Source of the DNA: an uncultured Clostridia bacterium
Lineage (GTDB): Bacteria; Bacillota; Clostridia; Christensenellales; CAG-138
NCBI GenBank assembly: GCA_905235205.1
Contig: CAJOKM010000005.1
Coordinates: 1 to 49,421, forward strand
Length of the DNA: 49,421 nt
Direction: 5' to 3'
In this document: one piece after another, positions 14,643 to 36,732 of the stretch
How positions within the stretch are numbered: the first letter of the stretch is position 1
How the letters are laid out: each line of letters starts with the position of its first letter
The notes under the pieces: generated by a model
What the model was told of the DNA's origin: nothing
The model's database searches: none
What the model saw: only the letters and a program-made list of their open reading frames with translations
Made by a program: the position numbers and the translations under genes

Positions 14643-14745
14643 CGGCTTTTTGCAAACAATGTACCGGATTCCAGTTACGGAAGCAGCTTGTGCGCGCCGG
14701 CGATGATCGGCCAGTCGGTGCACAGTCCGAACGCTTCCACATACT

Positions 14746-15390
14746 CTACGCCGGGCGTGCCGCAGGCGGAGGCGTAGAACTTGCGATCATGTCCGCATAG
14801 TCAACGCCGAACGCGTCCTTACACCAGTCGCCCTGCTGCGAAGCGTGGCACGCAAAGAGCTTCATCTTGAGGTCGAACGTGTCCGTGATATCCACAAAAT
14901 ACTGTGCGTTGATCTTGTTGGTGAAACCGCCCGTAGGCGTGCAGTAGAACATTGGTGGGATATGATCGATCACCGGATGTTCCGTTTCCATCAGCTTCAC
15001 GGTCGCCAGGATGCGCGCTTCAAAGGCCAGATATCCGCTGATGTCGTGATCCTGGTTATAGTCTTTGTACGGAGGATGGGCAAAGATCACGTCGGGACGC
15101 GCGATACGCACGGCTTCTATGAACGCCATGCGGGTCTCCCGCTCGTCGAACAGCATCTCATCCTCAAATCCAAGCCAGATGAGATGCGCGCCGAGCAGCG
15201 CGCAGGACGCCTCCGCTTCCTTTTTCCGCATGGCCGCGATTTCCTCACGCGGACGGCCGTAGGAACCGATCTCGCCGTTGGTCGCGATGCAGACGAAGAC
15301 CTCGTCACCGCGCTTTACATACTTCGCAAGCGTTCCGGCACAACGAAACTCCACGTCGTCCGGATGCGCGCCGAAAGCCAAAACTCTCAT
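14746..15390 (-). CDS. PIG-L family deacetylase, copy 1, C-terminus frameshifted
   Basis: 214 aa. PIG-L (LmbE-like) enzymes are zinc-dependent N-deacetylases acting on N-acetyl sugars and related small molecules. The metal motif AHPDD (residues 9-12) and the later YNQDHDI are intact. The true C-terminus (FYASACGTPG... PIIAGAHKLLP) is encoded one frame away and runs to a stop at 14675. The reading frame shifts after DMIA and ends in an 11-residue foreign tail (SSTPPPAARPA). Copy 2 carries the same shift and tail; copy 3 is intact. Compared with copy 3, a 13-base loss between two GATC repeats would explain it. The core should still fold; the activity of the shortened form is uncertain. Confidence 0.8.
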   Translation of the reverse strand: MRVLAFGAHPDDVEFRCAGTLAKYVKRGDEVFVCIATNGEIGSYGRPREEIAAMRKKEAEASCALLGAHLIWLGFEDEMLFDERETRMAFIEAVRIARPDVIFAHPPYKDYNQDHDISGYLAFEARILATVKLMETEHPVIDHIPPMFYCTPTGGFTNKINAQYFVDITDTFDLKMKLFACHASQQGDWCKDAFGVDYADMIASSTPPPAARPA

Positions 15391-15533
15391 AACATGCTGC
15401 CTGCCTTTCTTGGCAAAAATCGGTGCCGTCCGGGCATTTCGCGCGGACGGCACGCCAGTGCTTTACGGAAGGAGCTTGTGCGCGCCGGCGATGATCGGCC
15501 AGTCGGTGCACAGTCCGAACGCTTCCACATACT

Positions 15534-16178
15534 CTACGCCGGGCGTGCCGCAGGCGGAGGCGTAGAACTTGCGATCATATCGCCGTAGTCAACGCCGAAC
15601 GCGTCCTTGCACCATTCGCCCTGCTGGGACGCATGGCAGTGGAACATCTTCATCTTGGTCTCAAACGTGTCGGTCACATCCACAAAATACTGCGCGTTGA
15701 TCTTGGTGGGCAGACCGCCGTGCGGCGTGCAGTAGAACATCGGCGGGATGTGATCGATCACGGGCGATTTCGTCTCCATCAGCTTGACCGTCGCAAGGAT
15801 CCGCGCCTCAAACGCCAGATAGCCCGTGATGTCGTGGTCCTGATTGTAATCCTTAAACGGCGGCGGCGCGAAGATCACGTCCGGGCGGGCGTAACGGACC
15901 GCCTCGATAAACGCCATGCGCGTCTCACGGTTGTCGAACAGCATTTCATCCTCATAGCCCAGCCAGATCAGTTCCGCACCGATCACGGCGCAGGAAGCCT
16001 CCGCTTCCTTTTTCCGCATGGCCGCGATTTCCTCGCGCGGGCGACCGTAGGAGCCGATCTCGCCGTTGGTTGCGATGCACATAAAAACCTTGTCGCCGCG
16101 TTTTGCGTACTTTGCCAGCGTACCGGCGCAGCGGAACTCCATATCGTCCGGATGCGCGCCAAATGCCAGAATTCTCAT
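15534..16178 (-). CDS. PIG-L family deacetylase, copy 2, C-terminus frameshifted
   Basis: 214 aa with AHPDD and YNQDHDI intact, close to copy 1 throughout. It has the same frame change after DMIA and the same tail SSTPPPAARPA. The unshifted tail remains readable in another frame to a stop at 15463. The last roughly 105 bases are nearly identical to those of copy 1 while the bodies have diverged, which points to gene conversion or a recent partial duplication. The ATG at 16178 is chosen because GGAAAGGTGG lies just upstream; the frame is open for 51 more codons that overlap copy 3 and its spacer. Confidence 0.8.
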   Translation of the reverse strand: MRILAFGAHPDDMEFRCAGTLAKYAKRGDKVFMCIATNGEIGSYGRPREEIAAMRKKEAEASCAVIGAELIWLGYEDEMLFDNRETRMAFIEAVRYARPDVIFAPPPFKDYNQDHDITGYLAFEARILATVKLMETKSPVIDHIPPMFYCTPHGGLPTKINAQYFVDVTDTFETKMKMFHCHASQQGEWCKDAFGVDYGDMIASSTPPPAARPA

Positions 16179-16230
16179 TGTAAAACCACCTTTCCGATTT
16201 TCTGTAAGTGTCTTGTTCCGTTTCTCTTCT

Positions 16231-16956
16231 TCACGGCAGAAGCGTATGCGCGCCTGCGATGATCGGCCAGTCCGTACAGAGCGTAAACGCCTCCACGGCT
16301 TCGCATCCCGGCGTACCGCAGGCGGACGCATACTGCCGGTCCGCGTTTTTGATCATTGCCGTAAAATCGACGCCGAACGCGTCCCCGCTCCATTCCCCGT
16401 GCTGCGATTTGTGGCACAGGAACATGGCGAGCTTCGTTTCGAACGTATCCGTGATGTCCACAAAATACTGCGGATCCGTTTTACCGGGCAGGTTGCCGAC
16501 CGGCACGCAGTAGAACATCGGCGGGATGTGATCGATCACCGGATGCTCCGTTTCCATCAGCTTGACCGTCGCAAGGATGCGCGCCTGAAACGCGAGATAC
16601 CCGCAGGCGTCGTGATCCTGATTGTAATCCTTGTACGGCGGCGGCGCGAAAATCACGTCCGGCCGCGCAAGGCGGACCGCCTCGATGAACGCCATGCGCG
16701 TCTCACGATTGTCGAACAGCATCTCGTCCTCGAACCCCAGCCAGATCAGGTGCGCGCCGATGACGTCGCACGACGCCTGTGCCTCCGCGTGGCGGATGCG
16801 CGCCAGCTCCTCCCTGGGCGTGTTGTACGAACCGATCTCGCCGTTCGTCGCGACGCACATGAAGATCTCGTCGCCGCGCTTCGCCATCTTGGCAAGCGTC
16901 CCGCAGCAGCGTTCCTCCAGATCGTCCGGATGCGCGCCGAATGCAAGCACTCTCAT
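16231..16956 (-). CDS. PIG-L family deacetylase, copy 3, intact
   Basis: 241 aa, full length for the family. AHPDD near residue 9 supplies metal ligands and the general base, and YNQDHDA the second metal-binding block. The C-terminal segment CGTPGCEAVEAF...WPIIAGAH is in frame here, unlike in copies 1 and 2. A GGGAGG ribosome site precedes the ATG at 16956. It follows the TIM-barrel-like gene by 18 bases and is the first of three tandem PIG-L genes at the end of the sugar operon. The substrate is unknown; an N-acetylated sugar brought in by the neighbouring ABC transporter is an inference from context. Confidence 0.88.
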   Translation of the reverse strand: MRVLAFGAHPDDLEERCCGTLAKMAKRGDEIFMCVATNGEIGSYNTPREELARIRHAEAQASCDVIGAHLIWLGFEDEMLFDNRETRMAFIEAVRLARPDVIFAPPPYKDYNQDHDACGYLAFQARILATVKLMETEHPVIDHIPPMFYCVPVGNLPGKTDPQYFVDITDTFETKLAMFLCHKSQHGEWSGDAFGVDFTAMIKNADRQYASACGTPGCEAVEAFTLCTDWPIIAGAHTLLP

Positions 16957-16974
16957 GGTCTGCCTCCCGCCGCG

Positions 16975-17649
16975 TCAGCGGTTCATGTAGTTGATAACAG
17001 CGGTGATCTCCTCGGCGAACGTGCCGCCGTAGAACTTCTGCTCAAAGAACGCGCCGCCGATGGTGAACGCCCACGCGCCGGTCGCCTTGACTTCGTCCAG
17101 GCGCTTATACGACGCCACGGAGCCGGCAAGGCACACGTCGCCGCGGACGTTTTTCACAAACTCGGCATTCAGCTTCACCGCGTCGCCCGTGTAGCGATAG
17201 CCCAGAAGATCGAAGCCCTTGATGCCCTTGGTGTCCACCAGGTTGTTCGCCTCGTCGATCATGCCCTCGATCGTGCCCTCAAGCACCGACGGGCGTCCGC
17301 TGATCTGTCCGACAAACGGCATATACTTGATGCCCGCTTTCTCAGCGATCTCGCGCACCGAATCGAAATACATGGTTCCCATGAGTACGTCAAAGCCGCA
17401 GCGCACGCAGATCTTCGCGCCCTCGATGCAGCCCGCTTCGGTGTAGTCCACCACTTCCAGGAATGTCGTCTTGCCGGCGGCTTTCATCCGCTTGACCAGC
17501 TCGATCATCTTGTCTTCCGGAAGTCCGACTTCCTTAAAGCCCCAGAACTTTGCCGGAGCGTCCTTTGCGCTTTCAAACACCTCAATGGCGTTCTCCACCG
17601 TGCGATCGTGATGGGTGAGCATCACGATCAGTTCGGGAATGTTCTTCAT
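16975..17649 (-). CDS. Unrecognised TIM-barrel-like protein of the sugar operon
   Basis: 224 aa, soluble, no signal peptide. Alternating strand and helix segments (ELIVMLTHHDRTV, FWGFKEVGLPED, TTFLEVVDYTEAG, FDVLMGTMYFDS, YMPFVGQISGRP, GFDLLGYRYTGD, DVCLAGSVASYKR, AWAFTIGGAFFEQ) suggest an eight-stranded barrel. The C-terminal CLAGSV and TIGGAFFE positions resemble the phosphate-binding loops of phosphosugar-handling barrels. I cannot assign it to a named enzyme. It has an excellent ribosome site (AAAGGAGGCGAG). Lying between a sugar-binding protein and three deacetylases, it may be an epimerase, isomerase or lyase acting on the transported sugar. Confidence 0.75.
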   Translation of the reverse strand: MKNIPELIVMLTHHDRTVENAIEVFESAKDAPAKFWGFKEVGLPEDKMIELVKRMKAAGKTTFLEVVDYTEAGCIEGAKICVRCGFDVLMGTMYFDSVREIAEKAGIKYMPFVGQISGRPSVLEGTIEGMIDEANNLVDTKGIKGFDLLGYRYTGDAVKLNAEFVKNVRGDVCLAGSVASYKRLDEVKATGAWAFTIGGAFFEQKFYGGTFAEEITAVINYMNR

Positions 17650-17733: not shown

Positions 17734-18900
17734 TCAATTGCCCGCGAGGTACGCTTCCAGCGTCTGATTGTGATAATGTTCGAACGCTTCGACGACGTTG
17801 TCCTTGGTGACCTTCATGTTGGCGTACCAGTAGATGCTCGGAACTTCTACGCCGTTCAGAAGGTTGACCATCGCGGACATGCACCAGAATGCCGGCGCCG
17901 TAGAGCTGTAGCACGCGGAACCGAGCAGTCTGCCGTCATAGATGCCTTCCAGAATAACCTTATCGTTGTCGATGGAGGTGATCGGGACGTCAGAGCCCGC
18001 CGCCTGCGCCGCGTTCATAACGCCGATGGTCGCGGACGAATACAGACCGAACGCGCCGAGCAGGTCTTCGCCGTAGTTGGCGATCGCGCCTTCAAACAGC
18101 GTGTAGTGATCCTCGGGGGAAACCGCGGTGAGCTGTTTGAACTCGATGTCCGGGTAATCTTTGAACACATCGCGGAAGCCCTTTTCACGGGTTGCCGCGT
18201 TCGGATGGACAAAGTTCAGGGTGCTGATGGTGATGACGCCCTTCATGTCGGATCCGTTCGCCTTCAGGTGGTCGAGAAGCATTTCGCCCGCCATACGGCC
18301 CTGCTCGACGCACTCGCCGAGGACGCCGGAGTTCGCGGTGCCTTCCAGAGCCGGGTTCAGCGTGACCACCGGGATGTTCGCCGCTTCGCAGGCGTCCAGC
18401 GCGCCCTTGACGCCGTAGAAGTCGCAGGGCGCGATGATGACGCCGTCCACGCCTTCGACGATCCACTGCTCGATCGCCTGATTCTGGAGGTTCTGGTCGT
18501 AGTTCGCGTCGTTGACCAGCAGTTCAACGCCGGCTTCCGCCGCAAACTTCTTCATGTTGTCGAGAATCATCGCGCCGACTTCGTCGACCGTGTAGTAGAC
18601 GGAGAAGCCGATTTTGTACGCCTTGTTCGCCTTGGGAATCGAAGTGGTCGGATCATCGGGCACCCATACGGTGCCGCCCATGCCGCTGTAGGTGGAGTGG
18701 CAGTCGTCAAACTCCGCATCCTTGTAGTACTGCGCAAGATCATACGCCTGACCCGCGGGCACTTCATACTTGTAATCCGCCAGGTTTGCGTCTACCGCGG
18801 GTTCGTCGGGTTTGACATCCTCTTCGGGACCGGTCTTGGTACAGGCTGCTACTGCAACCAGCATCAGAACTGCCAACAAAATGCTGAGTAGTTTTTTCAT
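17734..18900 (-). CDS. Sugar ABC transporter substrate-binding lipoprotein 1
   Basis: 388 aa. A lipoprotein signal peptide (MKKLLSILLAVLMLVAVAAC, lipidated Cys20) and an acidic linker precede a periplasmic-binding-protein type 1 (ribose/LacI-like) domain starting near KIGFSVYYTVDEVG. Family features are NDANYDQNLQNQAIEQW and DGVIIAPCDFYG, typical of Peripla_BP_4 sugar receptors. It would sit on the outer face of the membrane and feed the permease encoded at 20393-21391. It is a paralogue of the next binding protein. About 55 residues precede the domain, longer than usual. The ligand is unknown. Confidence 0.9.
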   Translation of the reverse strand: MKKLLSILLAVLMLVAVAACTKTGPEEDVKPDEPAVDANLADYKYEVPAGQAYDLAQYYKDAEFDDCHSTYSGMGGTVWVPDDPTTSIPKANKAYKIGFSVYYTVDEVGAMILDNMKKFAAEAGVELLVNDANYDQNLQNQAIEQWIVEGVDGVIIAPCDFYGVKGALDACEAANIPVVTLNPALEGTANSGVLGECVEQGRMAGEMLLDHLKANGSDMKGVITISTLNFVHPNAATREKGFRDVFKDYPDIEFKQLTAVSPEDHYTLFEGAIANYGEDLLGAFGLYSSATIGVMNAAQAAGSDVPITSIDNDKVILEGIYDGRLLGSACYSSTAPAFWCMSAMVNLLNGVEVPSIYWYANMKVTKDNVVEAFEHYHNQTLEAYLAGN

Positions 18901-20392: not shown

Positions 20393-21391
20393 CTATTTGA
20401 TCTGGTTCAGCTTGATCTGCTTCACCTGGGTTCTGGATTTCAGCGCGTTGTCCATAAGGACCGCGAGGATGATGACGATACCTTTGACGAGGATCTGCAC
20501 ATGGCTCTGCGCGCCGAGCAGCGAAAGCCCCGCGTTCAGCTCCGCCATGATGAGACCGCCGCCCAGCGTACCGATGATCGAACCGGCGCCGCCGGAGATC
20601 GCCGTGCCGCCGAGAACCGCTGCGCTGATGGCGTCCATGCTCAGGTCCGAACCGATGTCCGGCACACCCGCGTTCATCAGCGAGCAGAGGATCAGTCCGG
20701 CAAAGCCCGCCAGCAGGGCATTGAACATATAGGCGATGTACTTCACCCTGCGGATGTTGATGCCCGCGACCTTCGCCGCTTCCTCATTGCCGCCGATGCA
20801 GCGGCAGTAGTAGCCGAGCTTCGTCCTGCTGTAGAGGAACCAGCACACCACCAGGAAGAAGACCGTGATCAGCACCGGGATCGGGATAAAGTCGAACAGC
20901 TTGCCGTTCCCGAAGAAGTCGGTAAAGCCCTTGGCTTTGATCGATACGGTTCGCCCGGCGGTCAACGTCAGCGCGATGCCGCGGTAGATGTTCATGGTCG
21001 CCAGCGTCGTCAGAAACGGCGCGATCTTACCTTCCACGATGATGACGGCGTTGATGAGACCCATGATCAGCGCAAGGACCAGAACCACGGGCAACGCGAT
21101 CCCGATCGAAACGCCCTTGCTGAGCATATAGGCGAGCGAAACGCCCGTCAGCGCGGCGATGGAGCCGCCCGACAGATCGAGTCCGCCCAGCGTCATGACG
21201 AACGTGATGCCGAAGGCGGTGATCGCCACGTAGCTCATGCGCTTGATCATGTTCATGAGGTTCGTGGGATTCACGAACTTGGGCTTCAAAATGGTGAAGA
21301 TGATCAAAAGCGCGACCAGGATCAGAATCGTGCGGATCTTGATCAGAAACTGCCCGAAGCCCATCCCTGATTTTCTTGTTTTGATTTCCAT
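20393..21391 (-). CDS. Sugar ABC transporter permease (RbsC family)
   Basis: 332 aa with about ten hydrophobic segments, the pattern of ribose/xylose-type permeases (BPD_transp_2). The family block GGLDLSGGSIAALTG follows the second membrane span, and GGTAISGGAGSIIGTLGG lies near the C-terminus as in RbsC-like proteins. It would form the channel with the ATPase encoded directly upstream (18 bases apart). A possible stem-loop between this gene and the binding-protein gene downstream (CCGGCGCG with CGTGCCGG) could set different message levels. Confidence 0.93.
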   Translation of the reverse strand: MEIKTRKSGMGFGQFLIKIRTILILVALLIIFTILKPKFVNPTNLMNMIKRMSYVAITAFGITFVMTLGGLDLSGGSIAALTGVSLAYMLSKGVSIGIALPVVLVLALIMGLINAVIIVEGKIAPFLTTLATMNIYRGIALTLTAGRTVSIKAKGFTDFFGNGKLFDFIPIPVLITVFFLVVCWFLYSRTKLGYYCRCIGGNEEAAKVAGINIRRVKYIAYMFNALLAGFAGLILCSLMNAGVPDIGSDLSMDAISAAVLGGTAISGGAGSIIGTLGGGLIMAELNAGLSLLGAQSHVQILVKGIVIILAVLMDNALKSRTQVKQIKLNQIK

Positions 21392-21409: not shown

Positions 21410-22903
21410 TTAGTGTAATGCAGCCGTGGCAAGCGTCATAATCCCTTCCTGCGTTGCCTCGGCGTGCGGAACGATGCCCGTCATTTTTCCTTCGCACATG
21501 ACCACGATCTGGTCCGTGACGCTGATCAGCTCCGGCAGCTCGCTGGACACCATGACGACCGCGACGCCCTGCGCCGCCAGATCGCCCATAATGCTGTAGA
21601 TCTCGGTCTTGGCGCCGATGTCGATGCCGCGGGTCGGTTCGTCGAACAGAATGATCTGCGGCTCAAAGTCCAGCCACTTGGCGAGCGCGACCTTCTGCTG
21701 ATTGCCGCCGGACAGCGTGCTCGCCGTCTGCGAAAGGTTGGCAAGGCGGATGTTCAGCTTCTCGCGGTGTCCCTTTGCCACTTCCTTCAGATCCTTCCAG
21801 TTGAGCACGCCGAACTTGTGCATGGTATCCGCGTTGACCATGTTGACGTTCTCGTACACCGGAAGGCACAGAACCAGACCCGTTTTTTTGCGATCCTCCG
21901 TGACAAACGCGATGCCGTGCTTGATCGCGGCGCGCGGGCTTGTCGGTACAAACTCCTTGCCGTTTACATAGATCTTGCCGCCGGTGATCTTACGAAGACC
22001 GAACAGCGCCTCCATCAGCTCGGTGCGCTTCGCGCCCACCAGACCGCCGATGCCGATGATCTCGCCTGCGCGCACCTCGAACGATACGTGCTCGAATGCG
22101 TCGGAGCAAAGGTCCTCCACCTTGAGCACCACGTCGCCCAGTTCCACTTCGCGCTTCGGATAGACGTTGGTCATTTCGCGGCCGACCATCATGTTGATCA
22201 GATCCTGCGTGGTGACCTCGTTCGCTTCGACCGTGCCGACCATGTTGCCGTCGCGCAGGACCGTCACGCGGTCAGCGATCTCGCCGATCTCATGGAGCCG
22301 GTGCGAGATATAGATGACCGTGACGCCCTCGTCTCTGAGGCTGCGGACGATCTCCAACAGCCGCTCCGCATCCTTCTGCGAAATGGAGCTGGTCGGCTCG
22401 TCCATCAGAAGCACCTGTGCGTTCGCCGAAAGCGCCTTTGCGATCTCCACAACCTGCTGCTGCGCGATGGACAGTCGGCGAACCTTGGTGTTCGGATCAA
22501 GATCCATCCCCAGCCGCTGCAGCACTTCCGTGGCGCGCTTATTGAACTCGCGCGGATGCAGCATGAAGCCGGGATACTCCTCCTGCTTGTCGATCACGAT
22601 GTTCTCGGCGATGGACATGTCCTGGCAAAGGCTCAGCTCCTGATAGATGGTGTGGATGCCTGCCGCCTTTGCGTCATGCGGCGTGCGGAAGTGCACTTTT
22701 TGTCCGTTGACTTCGATTTCACCGCCTTTGTCGGGCGGCTGGTAACCGCTGATGATCTTGATCAGCGTGGATTTTCCGGCGCCGTTTTCACCCAACAGGG
22801 CGTGAACCTCGCCTTTGCGGATGTCCAGATTGACATCCCGCAAAACGTTTACGCCGAAGAATGTTTTTCCGATATTGCGGAGTTTCAAAATGTTTTCGGA
22901 CAA
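21410..22903 (-). CDS. Sugar ABC transporter ATP-binding protein (RbsA/MglA type)
   Basis: 497 aa with two ATPase domains, as in ribose/galactose importers. Domain 1 has Walker A GENGAGKST, the signature LSIAQQQ and Walker B VLLMDEPTSS. Domain 2 has the usual degenerate Walker A (IGGLVGAKRTEL), the signature LSGGNQQKV and Walker B IILFDEPTRGID. I place the start at a TTG codon (22903), because GGAGGTG lies six bases upstream and the family sequence begins there (SENILKLRNIGK). An ATG at 22945 lies upstream of this ribosome site and adds 14 residues without family similarity. Confidence 0.93.
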   Translation of the reverse strand: MSENILKLRNIGKTFFGVNVLRDVNLDIRKGEVHALLGENGAGKSTLIKIISGYQPPDKGGEIEVNGQKVHFRTPHDAKAAGIHTIYQELSLCQDMSIAENIVIDKQEEYPGFMLHPREFNKRATEVLQRLGMDLDPNTKVRRLSIAQQQVVEIAKALSANAQVLLMDEPTSSISQKDAERLLEIVRSLRDEGVTVIYISHRLHEIGEIADRVTVLRDGNMVGTVEANEVTTQDLINMMVGREMTNVYPKREVELGDVVLKVEDLCSDAFEHVSFEVRAGEIIGIGGLVGAKRTELMEALFGLRKITGGKIYVNGKEFVPTSPRAAIKHGIAFVTEDRKKTGLVLCLPVYENVNMVNADTMHKFGVLNWKDLKEVAKGHREKLNIRLANLSQTASTLSGGNQQKVALAKWLDFEPQIILFDEPTRGIDIGAKTEIYSIMGDLAAQGVAVVMVSSELPELISVTDQIVVMCEGKMTGIVPHAEATQEGIMTLATAALH

Positions 22904-22965
22904 ACAGTTCACCTCCAGTTCCTGTGTTTGTGTCCTTATCCCCAACCGGGATCTTCTTTATTATT

Positions 22966-30200: not shown

Positions 30201-30479
30201 TCAGGTCAGGGTGCATTTTGTACTATTGTAACGGTCGATAATTCCGACGACGGCAAGATCCACGGGGACCTTTCCTCTGCGGAACGAAGCCGCCGCTTCG
30301 GAACTGTCAACAAGATACACATATTCTCCGGCGCCCGCCGTTTCAAGCGGATCGCCCGCGATCAAAAGTCCTTTCGGCTTTCCCGACACGTACTGCCGGA
30401 TCAGCAGAAGCCGGATTCCGGTGAGCGCGGGATGCTTGGGTGTGCATACCACGTTTCCGATGACTTTTCCGACGATCAT
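30201..30479 (-). CDS. BMC-P shell vertex protein (EutN/CcmL), copy 2
   Basis: 92 aa. [21 protein letters not shown] is the usual vertex-protein start, [14 protein letters not shown] the central loop, and [12 protein letters not shown] the last strand. It forms pentamers at shell corners. It lies between the BMC-T and BMC-H genes and has AAAGGAG upstream. Confidence 0.95.
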
Positions 30480-30518: not shown

Positions 30519-31064
30519 TTACTGCAGCGCGTCCGTTAGTTCCGGATGCGGCGCGGGAATGACCACGGCGTTGGTGATCATGCCGTCCGACCCGCGCTCT
30601 CCGACGCCTGCCTGCACGGCCGCCCGCGCCGAGGATACGCTGCCGGTCAGAAGCACAAATGATTTCCCGCCGAGCCCCGTGCCCAGCCGGATCTCCATCA
30701 GATGCACGTCCGCCGCCTTCACCGCCGCATCTGCGGACAGCAGCGCCTGCGCAAGCGAGAACGTCTCGATCACGCCGAGCGCCTCCACGCCGTTCAGATC
30801 GACCGCGCCGCGCATCGCCAGCACGACTTCCTCGTGGATGCGCGGTATAATCATGCTGTCGATCAGGTTCTGACCGGACGCCGTGCATCCCGCCTCCACC
30901 GACGCTTTCACGTCCGCAACGGAGCCGGTGATGATCACCACATACTTGCCCGGACAGACCGCCGATGCTTTCACCACGGTCACGTTTGCCGCTTTCAGAA
31001 TCGCATCCGCCGCAAAGATCCCCTGGGAGATGCTGTTCAGTTCAACCATGCCCAATGCTTCCAT
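30519..31064 (-). CDS. BMC-T shell protein, PduT-like (tandem BMC domains)
   Basis: 181 aa, two BMC domains (about 1-90 and 92-181) that give pseudo-hexameric trimers. Cys37 in AVCPGKYVV sits where PduT has the pore Cys that helps hold a 4Fe-4S cluster (ICPGK in PduT). The pore may therefore pass electrons through the shell. It lies next to the PduS-like gene, and PduS with PduT is a known pairing, which strengthens both calls. A TAAGGAGGC site precedes the ATG. Confidence 0.94.
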   Translation of the reverse strand: MEALGMVELNSISQGIFAADAILKAANVTVVKASAVCPGKYVVIITGSVADVKASVEAGCTASGQNLIDSMIIPRIHEEVVLAMRGAVDLNGVEALGVIETFSLAQALLSADAAVKAADVHLMEIRLGTGLGGKSFVLLTGSVSSARAAVQAGVGERGSDGMITNAVVIPAPHPELTDALQ

Positions 31065-31076: not shown

Positions 31077-32384
31077 TTAGCCGATGACGATCTCGTTGGC
31101 GGTAATGGCACGAACCGTGCCGTTGATCGACGCGTGGATGTCCACGCCCAGTTTTCCTTCCGGCGCTTTGGCGATCCGTTCGCCGACAGTTACAAGCTGC
31201 CCGACGCTCACCACGCACTCCGACGGCGCGCCGATATGCATCTTCAGCGGGATCCGCACCTGTCCCGGATGAAGCTCCTCCCGCAGGAGCGGCGCGGGCA
31301 CGTCGTACTTCTTCAATCCCAGCCGCGCAATCAGCCGGTGGACGGGAACCTTCCCGTACTCCCGGAACGGATGCGCGTGTTCCGGCGTTCGCTTTTCGGG
31401 TTTGACGCCGCTCTGCGCCATTGCCGTCTTCGCTTCCGTCATGATCGCCGAAGGCGTCAGCCCGAACGGACAGGCATAGAAGGAACAGACGCCGCAGTTA
31501 CAGCAGGAGAACAGCCCGTTGTCCCTGTATTCACCGCCGTAGGCAGCCGCGCGCATCGCCAGATGCGGCTTGACGCCGAGTCCGATCGCGTTTCGCGGAC
31601 ACAGTTCGGTGCACATCATGCACTGACAGCAAACGCTTTTTGCCAGCTTCCGGTTGAAGCTCTGCGGCGCCGCCTTGCGCAGGTAGTGCGGATGATCCTT
31701 TTTCAGCACGATGAGGCCGCCGGTGGTCTTGGTGACGACGCTGTCCCAGTTCGGTTCCACATACCCCATCATGGGGCCGCCGCAGATCAGTCCGTAGCCT
31801 TCTTCGTCGGCAGGTCCGCCCGCGAGCGCGATGCAGTCGCGGAAACTCATGCCCAGCGGCGCGTCGATTGTGACCGGCGTTGCGACCTCGCCGGTGACGG
31901 TAAGGCGCTTGTGCGTCACCGGAACATCCTGCTGCGCAAGCGCGATGTTCTTCAGGGTGGATACGTTCTGCACCACCGCGCCCGCGTCGATCGGAATTCC
32001 GCCGACGGGCACAATACGTCCGGTCACGTCATATACGAGCTGCTGCTCGTCCCCGGCCGGATAATAATCGTTCAGGATGAACACGGAGATGTTCCGTTCG
32101 TTCTTGCAGGCAGCTTCCAGCGCTTCGATGGCTTCCCTGTGCTTGCCCTTGATGCAGATCTTGCCTTCCTTTGCGCCGCAGGCCTCCATCGCATACCGCA
32201 TGCCCGCAACGACCGCTTCGGGTTCGTCGCGCATCAGCTGCTGGTCCACCCGGAGCAGCGGTTCGCATTCGGCGCCGTTGCCGATCACGATGTCGGCTTT
32301 GCAGTTGAGCTTCACATGGGTCGGAAATCCCGCTCCGCCCGCGCCGACAACGCCTGCCGCCTTGCATTTGTCGTGAATGACCAT
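31077..32384 (-). CDS. PduS-like flavin/iron-sulfur electron-transfer protein
   Basis: 435 aa. The N-terminal RnfC/NuoF-like part has GVVGAGGAGFPTHVKL (flavin and NADH site) and NGAECEPLLR. Two ferredoxin-type cysteine sets follow at residues 252-263 (CCQCMMCTELCP) and 294-305 (CCNCGVCSFYACP). The end is an RnfC barrel-sandwich-like region. PduS reduces cobalamin in propanediol compartments, but no B12-dependent enzyme is encoded here, so a role in recycling NADH, with electrons leaving through the PduT-like protein, fits better. That role is inferred. The ribosome site is AAAGGAGGAC. Confidence 0.92.
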   Translation of the reverse strand: MVIHDKCKAAGVVGAGGAGFPTHVKLNCKADIVIGNGAECEPLLRVDQQLMRDEPEAVVAGMRYAMEACGAKEGKICIKGKHREAIEALEAACKNERNISVFILNDYYPAGDEQQLVYDVTGRIVPVGGIPIDAGAVVQNVSTLKNIALAQQDVPVTHKRLTVTGEVATPVTIDAPLGMSFRDCIALAGGPADEEGYGLICGGPMMGYVEPNWDSVVTKTTGGLIVLKKDHPHYLRKAAPQSFNRKLAKSVCCQCMMCTELCPRNAIGLGVKPHLAMRAAAYGGEYRDNGLFSCCNCGVCSFYACPFGLTPSAIMTEAKTAMAQSGVKPEKRTPEHAHPFREYGKVPVHRLIARLGLKKYDVPAPLLREELHPGQVRIPLKMHIGAPSECVVSVGQLVTVGERIAKAPEGKLGVDIHASINGTVRAITANEIVIG

Positions 32385-32420: not shown

Positions 32421-33818
32421 TTACAGCATATCCATCGCGCCGCGCAGCGTACACCGGCGGGTCCTGGTGAACGTCCGCGCGCTGGTAAGTCCCTCTCCGG
32501 TAGGGGTCGCGATGGTGAAGGTCGTGAAACCTTCACCACCGAACCCGATGCCTGCGTAGGAGGGACCGTTTTTCACAAAGATCGTCGTGTCCAGCGCCTG
32601 AGAAGCGCGGGAAAGGTTCTCCACGTTCGTGGAGTGCATGTGCGCCGAATGGTGATTCCCGTGTTCCGCCTCCACCGCGCAGGCAATGGCCTCGTCCACG
32701 TTCTCCACAAACACGACCGGCATGACCGGCATCAGCATCTCCGTCGTGACGAACGGATGGTCCTTGGTCGTGACCGTCACGACCAGCCGCGGATTGCCCT
32801 GTACGGGGATCCCGGCGCTCTGAAGCAGATATGCCGCGTCGCGTCCGACGAAATCCCGGTTGATCACATATTTCCCGTCCTTTTTCAAAAGGACCGTGTC
32901 TAAAAGCTTCTGCGCCTGTGCGCCGTCTATGAGCTGCGCGCCGTTTCTTACCATGCCCGCCACCAGCGCTTCGCCCACCGATCTGACCGCAAAGGTTTCC
33001 TTTTCGGAAATGCAGGGAATGTTGTTTTCAAAGCTCGCTCCGTCCACGATATCCTTGGCGGCGCGTTCGATATTCGCCGTTTCATCGACGATCACCGGCG
33101 GATTGCCGGGGCCCGCGCCGATGACCTTTTTGCCGCTCTTCATCGCCATGGACACGATCGCTTCCCCGCCGGTCACCGCGAGAAGACGGATCGCGGGATG
33201 GCTCATCAGCCGCTGGGAGCTTGCAATGGACGGTTCCTGAACCGCATAGAGCAGCGGTCCGGGCGCGCCTGCCGCCACCGCTGCCTGATTGAGAACCTCG
33301 ATGGCCATAGCGGAACACTTTTTCGCAGCGGGATGCGGCGCGAACACGACCGTGTTTCCGGCAGCCGTCATACCGATCCCGTTGTTGATCACCGTCGCCA
33401 CGGGATTCGTGGAGGGCGTGATGGAACCGATGACCCCGAAAGGTGCCGGGAAGATCAGCGTCAGCCCCTCGTCGCCTGTGACGGCGCGCGGCTCCAAATC
33501 CTCAACGCCGGGCGTTTTCTGCGCCGCGAGCAGACACTTGGCCGTTTTGTGCGCGATGGAGCCGTACTTCGTTTCTTCAAACGCCGCTTTTGCCAGTTCC
33601 TCCGCGTGCTCGATCGCCGCCCTGCGCATGGCTTCCACGATCGTTCGCCGCTTTTCCATGCCGACCCGCACAAACTCCTTCTGCGCCCGGAGCGCCGCTT
33701 CGATGCAGTCGTCCATCTCCGCAAAGAAGCACGCGTTCGCCTCGGACGCTTCTGTCAAAGGCTGCATCTGCCGCACCACATCCGCAATGATTCGTTCGAT
33801 CTGTTCCTGTGAAAGCAT
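32421..33818 (-). CDS. CoA-acylating aldehyde dehydrogenase (PduP/EutE family), BMC core enzyme
   Basis: 465 aa. Residues 1-19 (MLSQEQIERIIADVVRQMQ) form an amphipathic helix typical of BMC cargo tags. The catalytic Cys is C269 in FENNIPCISEKE, and the cofactor-binding GAGPGNPPV and TPSTNPVAT blocks match PduP/EutE. It turns the aldehyde made inside the shell into acyl-CoA with NAD. It is the signature enzyme of nearly all aldehyde-oxidising compartments. The next step would be taken by PduL. The aldehyde is unknown; acetaldehyde, propionaldehyde, lactaldehyde and glycolaldehyde are all possible. Confidence 0.95.
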   Translation of the reverse strand: MLSQEQIERIIADVVRQMQPLTEASEANACFFAEMDDCIEAALRAQKEFVRVGMEKRRTIVEAMRRAAIEHAEELAKAAFEETKYGSIAHKTAKCLLAAQKTPGVEDLEPRAVTGDEGLTLIFPAPFGVIGSITPSTNPVATVINNGIGMTAAGNTVVFAPHPAAKKCSAMAIEVLNQAAVAAGAPGPLLYAVQEPSIASSQRLMSHPAIRLLAVTGGEAIVSMAMKSGKKVIGAGPGNPPVIVDETANIERAAKDIVDGASFENNIPCISEKETFAVRSVGEALVAGMVRNGAQLIDGAQAQKLLDTVLLKKDGKYVINRDFVGRDAAYLLQSAGIPVQGNPRLVVTVTTKDHPFVTTEMLMPVMPVVFVENVDEAIACAVEAEHGNHHSAHMHSTNVENLSRASQALDTTIFVKNGPSYAGIGFGGEGFTTFTIATPTGEGLTSARTFTRTRRCTLRGAMDML

Positions 33819-33891: not shown

Positions 33892-34506
33892 TTATTTGCC
33901 CGACCGGTTCGCCTCTCCGGTTACAATCCGATGAAACTGCTCCGCCGGCGTTGAATCGACCTTACGTCCGCGATACGGGTTCGGAACCCGATCCGCATCG
34001 TCAATGGTAATGCTGCGGACCGGCGCCGCCTGCCGTGCGGGTACGGTTTCCGGTCCCGCGTTTCCCGGTTTTTCGGTCCTCTGCACGGGCGCTTTGACCG
34101 GTTCCGGCTTCGGTTCCGGCTTCGGTTCCGGCGTCTTGACCGGTTCCGGCTTCGGTTCCGGCGCTTTGACCGGTTCGATCGCCTGCGGTTCCGTCTTTCC
34201 GGCGGCTTTTTCACCGTATTTCTTATAGCAGACGGCGCCGTTCATCTCGACCTGATCCACGATGCCGACGATTGCCATATCCACCGGACGTTTGTCCGTT
34301 TGCTCCGTCTGGCGGGCGCTGCTGCCGTTGACGCACATGACCAGCTCGCCCTCTCCCGCGCCGACCAGATCCAGCGCGACGCGCGGCTGTCCGGAGGACT
34401 TCCGGGTATCGATGTTCCATTCCTCCACGATCAAAAGCTTGCTGCCGAGCAGCTTTTCCGTTTTGTTCGTGCTGACCACGTTGCCTTTCACCACCGCAAG
34501 AATCAT
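33892..34506 (-). CDS. BMC-P vertex protein with long Pro-rich C-terminal extension
   Basis: 204 aa, about twice the usual length. Residues 1-90 are an EutN/CcmL domain (MILAVVKGNVVSTNKTEKLL, then VDMAIVGIVDQV). Residues 100-165 are a Lys/Pro/Glu-rich stretch with repeated PEPKPEPVK units. Residues 166-204 are a short Arg-rich tail with PNPYRGRKVDS and AEQFHRIVTG. The start overlaps the upstream gene in ATGA. The extension is not part of any vertex protein I know. It could reach into the lumen to bind cargo, or outward to tether the shell; the tail looks like a peptide ligand. The G+C pattern is unchanged across it. Confidence 0.9.
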   Translation of the reverse strand: MILAVVKGNVVSTNKTEKLLGSKLLIVEEWNIDTRKSSGQPRVALDLVGAGEGELVMCVNGSSARQTEQTDKRPVDMAIVGIVDQVEMNGAVCYKKYGEKAAGKTEPQAIEPVKAPEPKPEPVKTPEPKPEPKPEPVKAPVQRTEKPGNAGPETVPARQAAPVRSITIDDADRVPNPYRGRKVDSTPAEQFHRIVTGEANRSGK

Positions 34507-35093
34507 GGAGAACCTCCCTTGTCGTTTAAAATGGTCACGCCCAGTTCCTTCGCCTCATCCCGCGCGTACGGTGTGATGATGGCGCCCGGCGCGGCCTCCA
34601 GTTCGCGCTTGCCCTGCCGGTAACACGCCGCCACCTCTGCCGCCGTAACCAGAGTCGGCGCCGACCTTGCGGACGGCTCCTCCGGCAGGTATACAATGTG
34701 CGCTCCGTCTTCCGCGATCTGCCGAAGACAGGTCTTCAGCCGTTTCGGAACACGGTTTTGCGCCAGGCCGCTTCGGATCGTCACCTCCGCGCCGCTCATT
34801 AAAAGCCGCGCCGTGAGGTCCGCAAAGAAGCAATCGTCCCTTAGCTCCGCTACCCGCCGGTAGAACGCCGGCGACGGCGTCATGACGCTCGCCCGGAGCA
34901 CCTTCGGAACCATCTGCATCACGGTTCGCCGGATCGCAGGATCATTCACGTCTAAAAACCGGTCCGTCCGCAGTTCGCCCGGGATACGGTTTACGTCCCC
35001 GACAAGATACGCGTCGGTGATCTGTCCGGTCAGTCCGCCCGCGGTCAGATAATCGGGGATCAGCACCAAATGGATTGTCCGCGGCGCGCTCAT
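34503..35093 (-). CDS. BMC-associated protein of unknown function
   Basis: 196 aa, soluble, no cargo-tag helix. It is translationally coupled on both sides (ATGA overlaps with pduL and with the BMC-P gene), which implies a closely linked job. The C-terminal part has LVTAAEVAACYRQGKREL and ITPYARDEAKELGVTI, a pattern I recall from conserved unknown proteins of ethanolamine- and propanediol-type BMC operons. That link is from memory and uncertain. No catalytic motif is recognised. Confidence 0.8.
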   Translation of the reverse strand: MSAPRTIHLVLIPDYLTAGGLTGQITDAYLVGDVNRIPGELRTDRFLDVNDPAIRRTVMQMVPKVLRASVMTPSPAFYRRVAELRDDCFFADLTARLLMSGAEVTIRSGLAQNRVPKRLKTCLRQIAEDGAHIVYLPEEPSARSAPTLVTAAEVAACYRQGKRELEAAPGAIITPYARDEAKELGVTILNDKGGSP

Positions 35094-35740
35094 AGCGTAT
35101 CCTCACACACGCCGCGAAGAAGCATATCGTTTACGATGCCGGCGGCGTTTGCCTCGTCGGTATCGACGTGCGCTTCCAAAAGCGCCTTGTCCGAAACGCG
35201 GACAGCCACCCGCATCAGGACCGTCGGCCGCTCTCCCTGTGTGATCAGCGAAACGAAGCTTCCGTTTTTCAGGCGGAACGTGTCCGCAAGATCCGACGGT
35301 ACATGCAGATGCCGCATCGCAACGATAACGCCCTCGCGAATCGTCAGGGAGCCGTTCGGTCCTTCCAGCGTCAGCGATTCGGAACCGGAAATGTCACCCG
35401 ACATCCGAAGGCAGGGCTTGATGCCCAATTTGAAACAGTCGGACCGGCTGATCTCCACCTGCGTCACGGGCCGAAGCGGTCCGAGAATGCGAACCTTCTC
35501 AAGCGTCCCTTTGGGACCGCGCAGCGTGACCGTCTCGTTACAGGCATACTGCCCAAGCTGAACCAGGTCCTTTTGATGTGTCAGACGGTACCCTTCCCCG
35601 AATAAACAGACAAGCGCGGATGCGTCCAAATGCACATGCCGATTGCTGACACTGACGGGAAGCAGAAGCTTCCCCGTTTCGCGGTATTGTTCGGCCAGCA
35701 ATTCCTGACGTACCCGTGCTTTCAGTTCCGTTTGATTCAT
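35090..35740 (-). CDS. pduL: Phosphate acyltransferase PduL
   Basis: 216 aa. PduL converts acyl-CoA and phosphate to acyl phosphate and frees CoA inside the compartment. The zinc-binding His sets are visible in VSVSNRHVHLD and in MRHLHVPSD. The first 18 residues (MNQTELKARVRQELLAEQ) can form the short amphipathic helix that acts as a cargo tag in other PduL proteins. The start at 35740 (GGGAAAGGGACC upstream) gives this helix; an earlier in-frame ATG at 35773 lies within a palindrome of the leader. It is the first gene of the long operon. No acetate kinase gene follows in this window, so the acyl phosphate must be used by an enzyme encoded elsewhere. Confidence 0.94.
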   Translation of the reverse strand: MNQTELKARVRQELLAEQYRETGKLLLPVSVSNRHVHLDASALVCLFGEGYRLTHQKDLVQLGQYACNETVTLRGPKGTLEKVRILGPLRPVTQVEISRSDCFKLGIKPCLRMSGDISGSESLTLEGPNGSLTIREGVIVAMRHLHVPSDLADTFRLKNGSFVSLITQGERPTVLMRVAVRVSDKALLEAHVDTDEANAAGIVNDMLLRGVCEDTL

Positions 35741-35770
35741 TTTGGGGTCCCTTTCCCTGCGAAAAAGGTT

Positions 35771-35822
35771 CATCAGATGTTTGACGATCGAGTCGTATAT
35801 CTTATACTTAATTCATCTGATG
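35771..35822 (-). promoter_or_regulatory. Paired palindromes in the BMC operon leader, candidate GntR operators
   Basis: CATCAGATG (35771-35779) and CATCTGATG (35814-35822) are mirror images, each nearly self-palindromic (CATC-W-GATG), and lie 34 bases apart between the pduL promoter and its ATG. Such placement fits a repressor roadblock or a looped pair. The divergent GntR gene 200 bases away is the natural candidate binder. Binding is inferred. The sites could also pair with each other in the RNA. Confidence 0.5.
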
Positions 35823-35827
35823 ATTTT

Positions 35828-35855
35828 ATTATAACACCAGATTTTTATTTGACAA
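35828..35855 (-). promoter_or_regulatory. Promoter of the BMC/sugar operon
   Basis: On the minus strand TTGTCA (35850-35855) and a perfect TATAAT (35828-35833) are 16 bases apart. The start point would lie just inside the first CATCTGATG palindrome, about 80 bases before pduL. Confidence 0.75.
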
Positions 35856-35943
35856 GACCCAAAATGCTGTTTTTGTATATTTTTTTCGTTTTCCGACCGG
35901 CTTTGTTTCAAAAACGAATGCAGACAATTCCGTGTGTTATTAT

Positions 35944-35971
35944 TTGACAATTCGGGATTTCATGCTACAAT
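35944..35971 (+). promoter_or_regulatory. Promoter of the divergent gntR gene
   Basis: TTGACA (35944-35949) and TACAAT (35966-35971) are 16 bases apart, about 50 bases before the GntR ATG. It is divergent from the BMC promoter, with about 90 A+T-rich bases between. Confidence 0.75.
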
Positions 35972-36021
35972 GTAATTAGGTTAGTTTAAGATTTGACATG
36001 TTTGGATCCGGGAGGGTGGCT

Positions 36022-36732
36022 ATGCCGGCATATATCAGGGCAAAAAAACAGATCCTTCATTTTATCCAGAGCAGGAAACTGACGGTAGGTGACCGGCTTC
36101 CCACCGAAACCGAATTATCCGAGCAGCTCGATATCGGGCGGCTGACGCTTCGGGAAGCGCTGAACGCGCTGAAAAGCGACGGACTGATCCATTCCGTTCA
36201 GGGGCGGGGCACGTTTGTTACCTGCCAGTTTGACCATATCGCCAATTCTCTGAACATCAACTGCGGCGTGACCGAAATGATCGAAACGGCGGGCTATCGT
36301 CCCGGCGTCGCATCCATCCGGAAGAAGCTCGTAAAAGCAGACGCCGCGGTGGCGCGAAGCCTTCACATTCCGGAGGGGACCGACGTTCTGATGTGCGGGC
36401 GCATTCGCCTTGCGGACGACATTCCCGTGGTGTATTCCATGGACTATCTGTCTCCGCGCCTTGCCGCTCCGTTCCTCGGCGTAACGGACGAGAACATATC
36501 TCTCTATGCGTTCATCGAGGATACCTGCGGCATCCAGATGGGTGTGTGCATGACGGAGCTCAAACCCGTGATCGCCGACAAAGCGGCAGCCGAACTTCTG
36601 GATGTTCCGCAGGGTTCTCCCCTTTTGCGCATGCTCGCAACCGTAAACGACGTGTTCGGCGCGCCGCTCATCTACGCGGACGAGCTGTTCCGCCCGGATA
36701 AGTTCGAGTTCATCGTTTCCCGCGGACGATAA
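36022..36732 (+). CDS. GntR-family regulator with UTRA domain (copy 2, divergent)
   Basis: 236 aa. The N-terminal winged helix has GDRLPTETELSEQLDIGR and LREALNALKSDG, and the rest is a UTRA effector-binding domain (VYSMDYLSPRLAAPFLG, GSPLLRMLATVNDVFG). It is a paralogue of copy 1 with matching length. The two recognition helices differ by few residues, so they may compete for the same sites. The ATG at 36022 has GGGAGG upstream; an ATG at 35998 lies before that site. Facing the first BMC gene across a shared control region, it is the likely local regulator. HutC-type members are mostly repressors relieved by a ligand. Confidence 0.92.
   Translation: MPAYIRAKKQILHFIQSRKLTVGDRLPTETELSEQLDIGRLTLREALNALKSDGLIHSVQGRGTFVTCQFDHIANSLNINCGVTEMIETAGYRPGVASIRKKLVKADAAVARSLHIPEGTDVLMCGRIRLADDIPVVYSMDYLSPRLAAPFLGVTDENISLYAFIEDTCGIQMGVCMTELKPVIADKAAAELLDVPQGSPLLRMLATVNDVFGAPLIYADELFRPDKFEFIVSRGR

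What the first reader, a model, noticed from the sequence alone, without database searches (positions are those of the whole stretch)
14675..36732. Microcompartment operon fused to a complete sugar uptake and processing set
One promoter (35828-35855) appears to drive about 22 minus-strand genes without a convincing internal terminator. They encode shell proteins (two BMC-H, three BMC-P, one BMC-T), the core aldehyde-to-acyl-phosphate pair (PduP/EutE-type dehydrogenase, PduL), the PduS/PduT electron pair, DeoC- and class II aldolase-family proteins, two dehydrogenases, an FGGY kinase, an ABC importer with two receptors and three PIG-L deacetylases. No B12 enzyme, glycyl radical enzyme, ethanolamine lyase or fuculose aldolase is present, so the common compartment types do not fit. 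Known BMC surveys describe sugar-phosphate-utilising types with DeoC, and this may be a relative or a new type. The substrate is probably a modified or N-acetylated sugar or polyol.
Basis: partly seen in the sequence, partly recalled or inferred. Interest (0 to 1): 0.8.

Follow-up and report, generated by a model that had tools for sequence, protein, structure and literature searches.

The report
Plug-in sugar module on microcompartment operon
In a gut bacterium, one gene cluster joins the parts of a protein-shelled microcompartment to a complete sugar uptake and processing set that recurs in three related genomes; its DeoC-type protein has lost the lysines that such aldolases use, so the compartment probably breaks down an unidentified sugar by a predicted route other than DNA-sugar breakdown.

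Summary
It is conserved. A sheep-gut Clostridia MAG and a closed genome, probably Christensenellaceae CE91St36, carry the same fused cluster. A fourth genome keeps the shell/core genes and the sugar module at separate places, so I read the locus as a sugar 'plug-in' joined to a metabolosome chassis resembling the catalogued SPU (sugar-phosphate) loci.
Two 'aldolases' are not ordinary. The DeoC-family protein keeps an encapsulation-peptide-like N-terminus but lacks Asp102, Lys167 and Lys201; 58 of 61 relatives lack Lys167, while the same genome has an intact DERA elsewhere. The class II aldolase (PF01116) keeps its zinc histidines but has Ser for the catalytic Asp in 120 of 121 sequences (one gap), with a conserved C-terminal tail; nine more distant relatives end in EP-like helices.
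No RpiB is in the locus, so it fails the SPU definition; no PF00596 aldolase, so it is not PVM, GRM5 or ACI. 'No internal terminator' is doubtful: a conserved GC-rich hairpin lies between aldolase and kinase. Substrate unknown; conserved PIG-L genes make an acylated sugar plausible but untested.
Verdict: new variant of a known kind.

The parts
35090..35773 (-). PduL-type phosphotransacylase
   Evidence: PF06130 227 bits; NCBIfam PRK15070 over cut-off
34503..35093 (-). EutQ-like protein of 196 aa, function unknown; chassis gene
   Evidence: weak EutQ hit, E=2e-4; counterparts between pduL and a BMC-P gene in G034, G157, G056, G127, G182; no hit in G036
33892..34506 (-). BMC-P vertex protein with a Pro/Glu/Lys-rich C-terminal extension of about 105 residues
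   Evidence: PF03319 on residues 1-84; extension also in G034 and, shorter, in one G157 copy; absent from the four SPU-like BMC-P proteins read (G056:C8, G036, G157, G127)
32421..33818 (-). EutE/PduP-type CoA-acylating aldehyde dehydrogenase with N-terminal EP-like helix
   Evidence: PRK15398 645 bits, over cut-off; helical moment of residues 3-20 reached by 23 of 2000 shuffles
31077..32384 (-). PduS-type flavo/iron-sulphur oxidoreductase
   Evidence: Complex1_51K, RnfC_N, SLBB, Fer4; CxxCxxCxxxC motif
30519..31064 (-). BMC-T, PduT-like, with CPGKY motif
   Evidence: two BMC domains; motif
30201..30479 (-). BMC-P
   Evidence: PF03319
29906..30172 (-). BMC-H
   Evidence: PF00936 103.5 bits
29603..29893 (-). 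BMC-P
   Evidence: PF03319
29284..29562 (-). BMC-H
   Evidence: PF00936 101 bits
28506..29204 (-). DeoC-family pseudo-aldolase with N-terminal EP-like helix; Asp102/Lys167/Lys201 (E. coli numbering, recalled) replaced by Leu/Leu/Gly
27773..28483 (-). internal GntR-UTRA regulator, 70% identical to the divergent one
   Evidence: start inferred
26700..27764 (-). Zn-dependent dehydrogenase, best NCBIfam hit scyllo-inosose 3-dehydrogenase IolM, below cut-off
   Evidence: start inferred
25605..26693 (-). D-2-hydroxyacid dehydrogenase family protein
   Evidence: PF02826 190 bits
24546..25598 (-). class II aldolase-family protein (PF01116), Asp-to-Ser active site, linker and conserved C-terminal tail; likely signature enzyme
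24497..24526 (-). GC-rich hairpin followed by CATGTTTTTT; possible attenuator or processing site
   Evidence: stem conserved in G034
22966..24468 (-). FGGY carbohydrate kinase, nearest to xylulokinase, below cut-off
21410..22945 (-). sugar ABC importer ATPase (type of ribose/arabinose/xylose importers)
20393..21391 (-). sugar ABC importer permease
   Evidence: PF02653
19037..20281 (-). sugar receptor 2
   Evidence: Peripla_BP_4; start inferred
17734..18900 (-). sugar receptor 1
   Evidence: Peripla_BP_4
16975..17649 (-). 224-aa TIM barrel without Pfam family; possibly a sugar-phosphate enzyme
   Evidence: no Pfam/NCBIfam hit; model pLDDT 96; broad, unspecific matches to phosphate-binding barrels
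16231..16956 (-). PIG-L family deacetylase 3
   Evidence: PF02585; AHPDD and NQDHD motifs
15534..16178 (-). PIG-L family deacetylase 2
   Evidence: PF02585; motifs; start inferred
14746..15390 (-). PIG-L family deacetylase 1
   Evidence: PF02585; motifs; start inferred
14620..14642 (-). terminator-like hairpin after the last gene, near-palindromic
   Evidence: scan reports the + strand site; minus strand folded
35828..35855 (-). promoter-like site before pduL
   Evidence: 11 of 12 consensus bases
35998..36732 (+). divergent GntR-UTRA regulator
   Evidence: PF00392, PF07702

Best explanation
The locus joins a metabolosome chassis related to SPU-like loci to a conserved sugar import and processing module, and the encoded compartment likely breaks down an unidentified, possibly acylated, sugar through a class II aldolase-family protein predicted to work inside the shell, with a DeoC-family protein that lacks its catalytic residues predicted to be packaged beside it. 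Shown: gene content; conserved fused order in three genomes (with small shell-gene changes in G157); split order in a fourth; loss of the DeoC catalytic residues; the fixed Asp-to-Ser change with kept zinc ligands in the class II aldolase family. Predicted steps: the importer brings in the sugar; PIG-L enzymes would remove an acyl group; the Zn dehydrogenase would make a ketose and the FGGY kinase phosphorylate it; the class II aldolase-family protein would release an aldehyde inside the shell; the EutE-type dehydrogenase and PduL would turn it into acyl-CoA and acyl-phosphate, which acetate kinase encoded elsewhere in the genome could use for ATP; PduS/PduT would carry electrons across the shell. 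The role of the 2-hydroxyacid dehydrogenase is open. The DeoC-like protein would then serve as a non-catalytic cargo or binding protein, or have taken up a different reaction.
For: Same 24-gene order in G034, including PIG-L and the 224-aa barrel; same order in closed genome G157 apart from a swapped BMC-H/BMC-P pair, an extra BMC-P, a flavin-reductase-like gene and one PIG-L fewer. G056 has the chassis at contig C8 and the module, with its own BMC-H, two BMC-P and a DeoC-like gene, at C76, plus further loci with BMC-H and EP-like-tagged DeoC at C9, C31 and C50 beside other sugar genes. G157 also has a separate SPU-like locus with two DeoC-family proteins that keep the lysines. DeoC-like: all three residues lost in window, G034 and G157, two of three changed in G056:C76 (one of these Asp to Glu), intact in chassis-locus DeoC; one supported clade, sister to the chassis DeoC (100/100 and 100/99). 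Class II aldolase: Ser in 120 of 121 (one gap), zinc His in 120, 121 and 121 of 121; 100 of the 120 listed relatives carry a GP..PS element near the C-terminus, and nine others (P0108, P0109, P0113-P0119) end in EP-like helices. 11 of 61 DeoC-like clusters have the same longest-contig length as one of the 120 listed aldolase clusters, all 11 without Lys167 (my comparison of printed tables). Acetate kinase in 4 of 4 genomes searched.
Against: The catalytic Asp of class II aldolases is missing; a Giardia D83A structure is titled as a complex with fructose-1,6-bisphosphate, which suggests that without it the substrate is not cleaved, so the protein may not cleave anything. The window protein's tail does not look like a classic EP, although its last 18 residues are fairly amphipathic (34 of 2000 shuffles); of four distant EP-like tails only P0116 beat shuffles clearly (5 of 2000; the others 190, 369 and 482), and the stretches were chosen by me. 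The PduL N-terminus is not amphipathic in the stretch I chose (1986 of 2000). At least 16 of 61 DeoC-like relatives are short and lack the N-terminal helix, so the protein is not only a targeting device. The module-on-two-chassis reading rests on an AldDH tree with a long window/G034 branch. RpiB is missing from the SPU-like loci too, so calling the chassis SPU-like rests on shell, core and DeoC genes only. No substrate was identified.
Confidence: 0.58

Rival explanations
1. Neither aldolase-fold protein cleaves; the aldehyde is made by another enzyme of the set (Zn dehydrogenase, 2-hydroxyacid dehydrogenase or the 224-aa barrel), and the PF01116 protein is an epimerase, isomerase or binding protein.
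For: Fixed Ser for the catalytic Asp, and Tyr for a second active-site residue (Asn in the 3q94 alignment; its role recalled), across the family; DeoC catalytic residues lost; the 224-aa barrel falls among folds that include sugar-phosphate lyases and epimerases.
Against: Zinc ligands are kept throughout and the GGTG loop and HGFYKG stretch largely kept in the aldolase family; distant members carry EP-like tails; the 224-aa barrel has 3917 scored relatives at E <= 0.001 against 61 DeoC-like ones at E <= 1e-5, so it looks like a general rather than a compartment enzyme.
Confidence: 0.2
2. It is an ordinary SPU compartment for deoxyribose phosphate whose DeoC works by an unusual mechanism, with the sugar genes feeding it.
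For: Similar chassis and related DeoC; three BMC-P, as in the published triplet pattern (their clades were not tested).
Against: Both lysines and the Asp are gone; no RpiB in the locus; an intact DERA lies elsewhere in the genome; G157 keeps a separate SPU-like locus with DeoC proteins that keep the lysines.
Confidence: 0.07
3. The sugar genes and shell genes are neighbours but not one functional unit; the hairpin and the internal GntR gene split them into separately controlled operons.
For: Hairpin between aldolase and kinase, stem conserved in G034; internal GntR; the module stands apart from the main shell locus in G056.
Against: Fused order in G034 and G157; even the separate G056 module carries BMC-H, BMC-P and an EP-like-tagged DeoC-family gene; the aldolase and dehydrogenase genes lie upstream of the hairpin, with the shell genes.
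Confidence: 0.12

Closest known systems
SPU (sugar phosphate utilization) BMC, PMC8217296 / PMC4207490
   Same: AldDH, PduL, PduS, BMC-T, BMC-H and three BMC-P; a PF01791-family protein; chassis similar to SPU-like loci in the same order
   Different: No RpiB (PF02502) in the locus; the DeoC-family protein lacks its catalytic residues; PF01116 protein, importer, FGGY kinase, two dehydrogenases and PIG-L genes added
PVM / PVM-like and GRM5 (fucose/rhamnose) BMC
   Same: a metal-dependent class II aldolase expected to yield the aldehyde from a sugar phosphate
   Different: the PVM and GRM5 aldolase is PF00596 (PMC8217296); here PF01116; no diol dehydratase or glycyl radical enzyme
ACI BMC of Acidobacteria (PMC8217296)
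   Same: 2-hydroxyacid dehydrogenase, three BMC-P, aldolase with a C-terminal extension
   Different: ACI aldolase is PF00596 with a C-terminal EP and its AldDH lies on a satellite locus; here PF01116 and AldDH in the main locus
E. coli YdjI aldolase (6ofu) and SqiA sulfofructose-phosphate aldolase (8q57)
   Same: class II aldolase fold; among the nearest solved structures
   Different: window protein has HLSHG (HLDHG in the 3q94 and 7nc7 alignments) and a C-terminal tail; YdjI and SqiA active sites were not aligned residue by residue here

Membership tests
Metabolosome (catabolic BMC) | BMC-H plus BMC-P in one locus | tested here: met
   two PF00936 single-domain, one double-domain and three PF03319 proteins
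Metabolosome (catabolic BMC) | PF00171 aldehyde dehydrogenase and phosphotransacylase | tested here: met
   PRK15398 and PTAC/PduL hits
SPU BMC | PF01791 family protein in the locus | tested here: met
   32.9 bits, above the Pfam cut-off; below the NCBIfam deoC cut-off
SPU BMC | DeoC able to make acetaldehyde from deoxyribose phosphate | tested here: not met
   by sequence only: Asp102, Lys167, Lys201 absent; activity not assayed
SPU BMC | PF02502 RpiB in the locus (PMC8217296: all seven subtypes share it) | tested here: not met
   no Pfam hit among operon genes; tblastn with one G157 RpiB finds none in the window or in the 8 other loci searched; RpiB lies elsewhere in 5 of 5 genomes searched
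SPU BMC | published shell-colour HMM classification | not testable with these tools
   Supplementary Data and HMMs of PMC8217296 were not readable here
PVM / GRM5 / ACI | PF00596 class II aldolase | tested here: not met
   no such hit among the operon proteins
PDU / EUT / GRM | B12 diol dehydratase, ethanolamine lyase or glycyl radical enzyme | tested here: not met
   no such family among the operon proteins
DERA (deoxyribose-phosphate aldolase) | Schiff-base lysine in the KTSTG motif | tested here: not met
   LLSAV at that place; intact DERA at G000:C16 as internal control
Class II aldolase (PF01116) | three zinc histidines | tested here: met
   120, 121 and 121 of 121 rows; their role as ligands is recalled
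Class II aldolase (PF01116) | catalytic Asp of HLDHG | tested here: not met
   Ser in 120 of 121, one gap; Asp in the 3q94 and 7nc7 alignments and in L021, L023, L060

The most novel reading that the evidence does not exclude
A family of exchangeable sugar plug-ins for bacterial microcompartments: each carries its own sugar genes, shell tile and encapsulation-tagged DeoC-family protein, often with importer and regulator, and can be fused to or separated from a common shell/core chassis. In this plug-in the DeoC protein has become a non-catalytic cargo hub, and a class II aldolase fold with Ser in place of the catalytic Asp has become the aldehyde-forming signature enzyme, with a tail that works as a new kind of packaging signal.
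Probability: 0.27. Interest if true: 0.75.

Novelty: new variant of a known kind. Interest (0 to 1): 0.55.

Why it matters
It shows how a microcompartment could change substrate by taking on a self-contained gene module, and it gives concrete test objects: a pseudo-aldolase that kept a packaging-type helix after losing its catalytic residues, and a zinc aldolase family with a fixed Asp-to-Ser active site. Reading either by family name alone ('DeoC', 'fructose-bisphosphate aldolase') could assign the compartment the wrong chemistry. A closed genome, probably of a named Christensenellaceae strain, carries the same cluster and may offer a cultured organism for tests.

Tried and rejected
SPU membership was considered first and rejected for lack of RpiB and of the DeoC catalytic residues. 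PVM, GRM5, ACI, PDU and EUT were rejected by domain content. A pure targeting-adaptor role for the DeoC-like protein was weakened by at least 16 of 61 relatives without the N-terminal helix. G823 was looked at as a distant aldolase carrier: it has the ordinary HLDHG motif, an EP-like tail and, of the window's proteins, only the aldolase has a match in its 19 kb, so I treat it as an outgroup. Searches for more carriers found the aldolase subfamily in 4 of 396 genomes of the order, only the window's own of 391 in the class, the window's own plus G823 of 398 in the phylum, 0 of 397 in another family (no positive control) and 1 of 18 in the family of G157; all but the last are samples drawn from larger groups. 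The genome-contig scan gave one locus, which is G034's contig. A literature search for the Asp-to-Ala aldolase study found no open copy; I cite only the PDB title. The sugar itself could not be identified from transporter, kinase or dehydrogenase hits, all below NCBIfam cut-offs.

Dropped rows and errors: one search read minus-strand loci in the wrong orientation and was replaced. The first GntR2 translation was out of frame and was corrected. The conservation run left out P0140, P0144, P0145 and P0154 (short or partial) and P0159-P0181. The ORF picker hid small shell genes behind longer false ORFs and was replaced by tblastn. The control recognised the Asp/Ser motif in only 3 of the 10 loci outside the subfamily (L021, L023, L060, all with Asp); the other 7 did not fit my pattern.

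Full report
Observation. The 49,421-base window is contig C5 of a 1.77-Mb assembly, 78% complete, in the same family as a Clostridia MAG. Between the threonyl-tRNA synthetase gene (12434-14386) and an aldo-keto reductase/two-component/isoleucyl-tRNA synthetase block (36788-42989) lie 24 collinear minus-strand genes and one divergent GntR regulator. Two genes without Pfam domains were not in it: a 196-aa EutQ-like protein and a 224-aa protein. Gaps between genes run from -4 to +136 bp (up to 143 bp with the starts). The PF00936 search finds this as the only BMC locus in the assembly, and 0 of 22 other genomes of the genus have a BMC domain match (many are incomplete).

Transcription. A TTGTCA-16-TATAAT site stands before pduL at 35855-35828, although the scan finds no more such sites than shuffled sequence gives. 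The claim of no internal terminator does not hold well. A 30-base hairpin with 10 G-C pairs followed by CATGTTTTTT lies between the aldolase and kinase genes. It folds in both genomes (z -2.1 and -2.8), and the stem is conserved in G034 although the U-run there is broken. It could attenuate or process the message so that shell, core and aldolase genes are expressed differently from kinase and importer. A second GntR gene inside the cluster, 70% identical to the divergent one, points the same way. A terminator-like hairpin (14642-14620) and a 12-of-12 promoter site (14614-14587) mark the likely end of the cluster and start of the threonyl-tRNA synthetase unit.

Conservation. G157, a closed 2,768,446-bp genome, has the same order from pduL to two PIG-L genes, except that one BMC-H/BMC-P pair is swapped, one BMC-P is doubled and a flavin-reductase-like gene sits between importer ATPase and kinase. 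A protein listed from a 2,768,447-bp contig is named Christensenellaceae bacterium CE91St36, so G157 is probably that strain; Christensenellaceae belong to Christensenellales in the NCBI taxonomy. In G056 the parts are separate: C8 holds PduL, EutQ-like, BMC-P, AldDH, PduS, BMC-T, BMC-H and DeoC; C76 holds two BMC-P, one BMC-H, DeoC-like, GntR, Zn dehydrogenase, 2-hydroxyacid dehydrogenase, class II aldolase, kinase, importer with one receptor, the 224-aa barrel, two PIG-L genes and a flavin-reductase-like gene. G056 has three more places (C9, C31, C50) with a BMC-H gene, one or two EP-like-tagged DeoC proteins with intact catalytic residues, and genes of other sugar families: importers at C31 and C50; KDPG aldolase, a pfkB kinase and another PF01116 protein, with LHLDHV, at C9.

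Chassis. A similar shell/core order with a DeoC gene occurs in G036:C45 (no EutQ-like hit), G056:C8, G127 and at a second place in G157; G182 has the chassis without a DeoC hit. In the four with DeoC it keeps the lysines, and G157, G127 and G036 also have a DERA-like protein in the same locus. These loci resemble the SPU type of the BMC catalogue (PMC8217296, whose text I read in parts 1-3 of 7, and searched; Supplementary Data not readable here), except that RpiB, which the paper says all seven SPU subtypes share, was not found in the 17-20-kb stretches. In an AldDH tree of 11 sequences the window and G034 stand apart, while the AldDH of G157's fused locus groups with those of the SPU-like loci (99/97). 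If this is not a long-branch effect, the same sugar module sits on two different chassis. The PduL tree is weakly resolved and does not settle it.

The DeoC-family protein. Against the solved DERA 3ngj, the KTSTG lysine falls on LLSAV. Aligned with DERA of the same and related genomes, Asp102, Lys167 and Lys201 (E. coli numbering and roles recalled) are Leu, Leu and Gly in the window; Ile, Met and Gly in G034; Thr, Val and Ala in G157; Glu, Val and Lys in G056:C76. Of 61 relatives found in the protein database, 58 lack Lys167, 2 have it and 1 has a gap there. In a tree of 37 sequences (21 genome proteins and 16 of the 61) the relatives without Lys167 form one clade (100/100) beside the chassis DeoC that keeps the lysine (100/99), and members such as P0156-P0158, P0165 and G056:C76 have lost Lys167 but kept Asp or Glu and Lys201. 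So Lys167 was probably lost first. G000 has an intact DERA at C16. The N-terminal stretch DIEQIIKRVAEEVYQKIR is strongly amphipathic (4 of 2000 shuffles reach it) and similar starts recur in 34 of the 61 by a loose pattern, as expected of an encapsulation peptide; 16 of 61 are short forms without it.

The class II aldolase. The PF01116 protein models as a class II aldolase (pLDDT at least 90 for 240 of 350 residues, tail of low confidence), nearest to Bacillus FBA, SqiA, tagatose-bisphosphate aldolase and YdjI. In 121 aligned sequences (120 listed of 1416 hits, plus the window) Ser replaces the catalytic Asp of HLDHG in 120 (one gap), the three zinc histidines stand in 120, 121 and 121, and Tyr replaces a second active-site residue in 120. 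The Giardia D83A structure titled as a complex with fructose-1,6-bisphosphate suggests that this Asp matters for cleavage, so activity has to be measured. After about residue 284 comes a linker, Ala/Pro-rich in the window, and a tail with a GP..PS element in 100 of 120 listed relatives, 98 of them followed by (Y/F)W, while nine of the remaining, more distant ones end in helices such as IEEIVKKVMQGL that look like encapsulation peptides. Of four such tails tested for helical moment one passed clearly. I read the tail as a likely packaging or assembly element.

Other parts. The 224-aa protein is a confidently modelled TIM barrel (pLDDT 96.1). Its matches are broad (583 chains at E up to 0.001, TM-scores about 0.5-0.7 in the listed rows) and include hexulose-phosphate synthase, KDPG aldolase, tryptophan synthase alpha and NanE, so the reaction stays open; 3917 relatives were scored, so it is not confined to this locus. 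The three PIG-L proteins keep AHPDD and NQDHD motifs and PIG-L genes are kept in all four modules (three, three, two and two copies). Kinase, importer and dehydrogenase hits all lie below NCBIfam cut-offs, so the sugar cannot be named.

Explanation and limits. I think the locus encodes a metabolosome whose substrate was changed by joining a sugar plug-in to a known kind of chassis. Uptake, deacylation, oxidation, phosphorylation, aldol cleavage, CoA acylation and phosphate transfer are inferred from families; packaging is inferred from tag-like ends. The strongest point against it is the missing Asp in the proposed signature enzyme. Papers: full-text searches for BMC surveys, microcompartment with class II aldolase/encapsulation peptide/DeoC, PIG-L or FGGY (no paper), Christensenellaceae, deoxyribose-phosphate aldolase, fructose-bisphosphate aldolase, pseudoenzyme and SPU (12 of 26 listed) showed no paper whose title or abstract start describes this locus; from the listed papers I read passages only of PMC4207490, PMC8156839 and PMC12339742 (nothing relevant), besides PMC8217296. 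This does not exclude a description in supplementary tables, unread bodies or subscription journals.

Noticed in passing
G056: L065 (C9), L034 (C31), L033 (C50), L031 (C76): One genome carries a shell/core locus plus at least four separate sugar loci, each with its own BMC-H gene and EP-like-tagged DeoC-family protein, as if several substrates feed one compartment type.
   Followed up: partly
G036:C45 and G056:C9, C31 DeoC proteins: EP-like-tagged DeoC proteins with intact catalytic residues end in a cysteine-rich CxxCGxC...CP tail that looks like a metal or iron-sulphur site.
   Followed up: no
window 33892-34506: BMC-P with an extension of about 105 residues rich in Pro, Glu and Lys; also long in G034 and, shorter, in one G157 copy, absent from four BMC-P of SPU-like loci read.
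   Followed up: partly
P0159-P0177: Sixteen short DeoC-like proteins (184-189 aa) lack both the N-terminal helix and Lys167; the three put in the tree group with helix-bearing P0146 at modest support (86/80). What they do without a compartment tag is unknown.
   Followed up: partly
window 24497-24526: GC-rich hairpin with T run between aldolase and kinase genes, stem conserved in a relative with about 90% identical proteins.
   Followed up: yes
G157 L061:14332-14826 and G056 L063:4685-5236: A flavin-reductase-like protein (PF01613) belongs to the module in two genomes; no such hit was seen among the window's cluster proteins.
   Followed up: partly
G057:C15, C21, C32, C35, C39, C50: Another genome of the order has seven DeoC-family proteins over the TIGR00126 cut-off, without obvious N-terminal encapsulation helices, and a large BMC locus at C73.
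   Followed up: no
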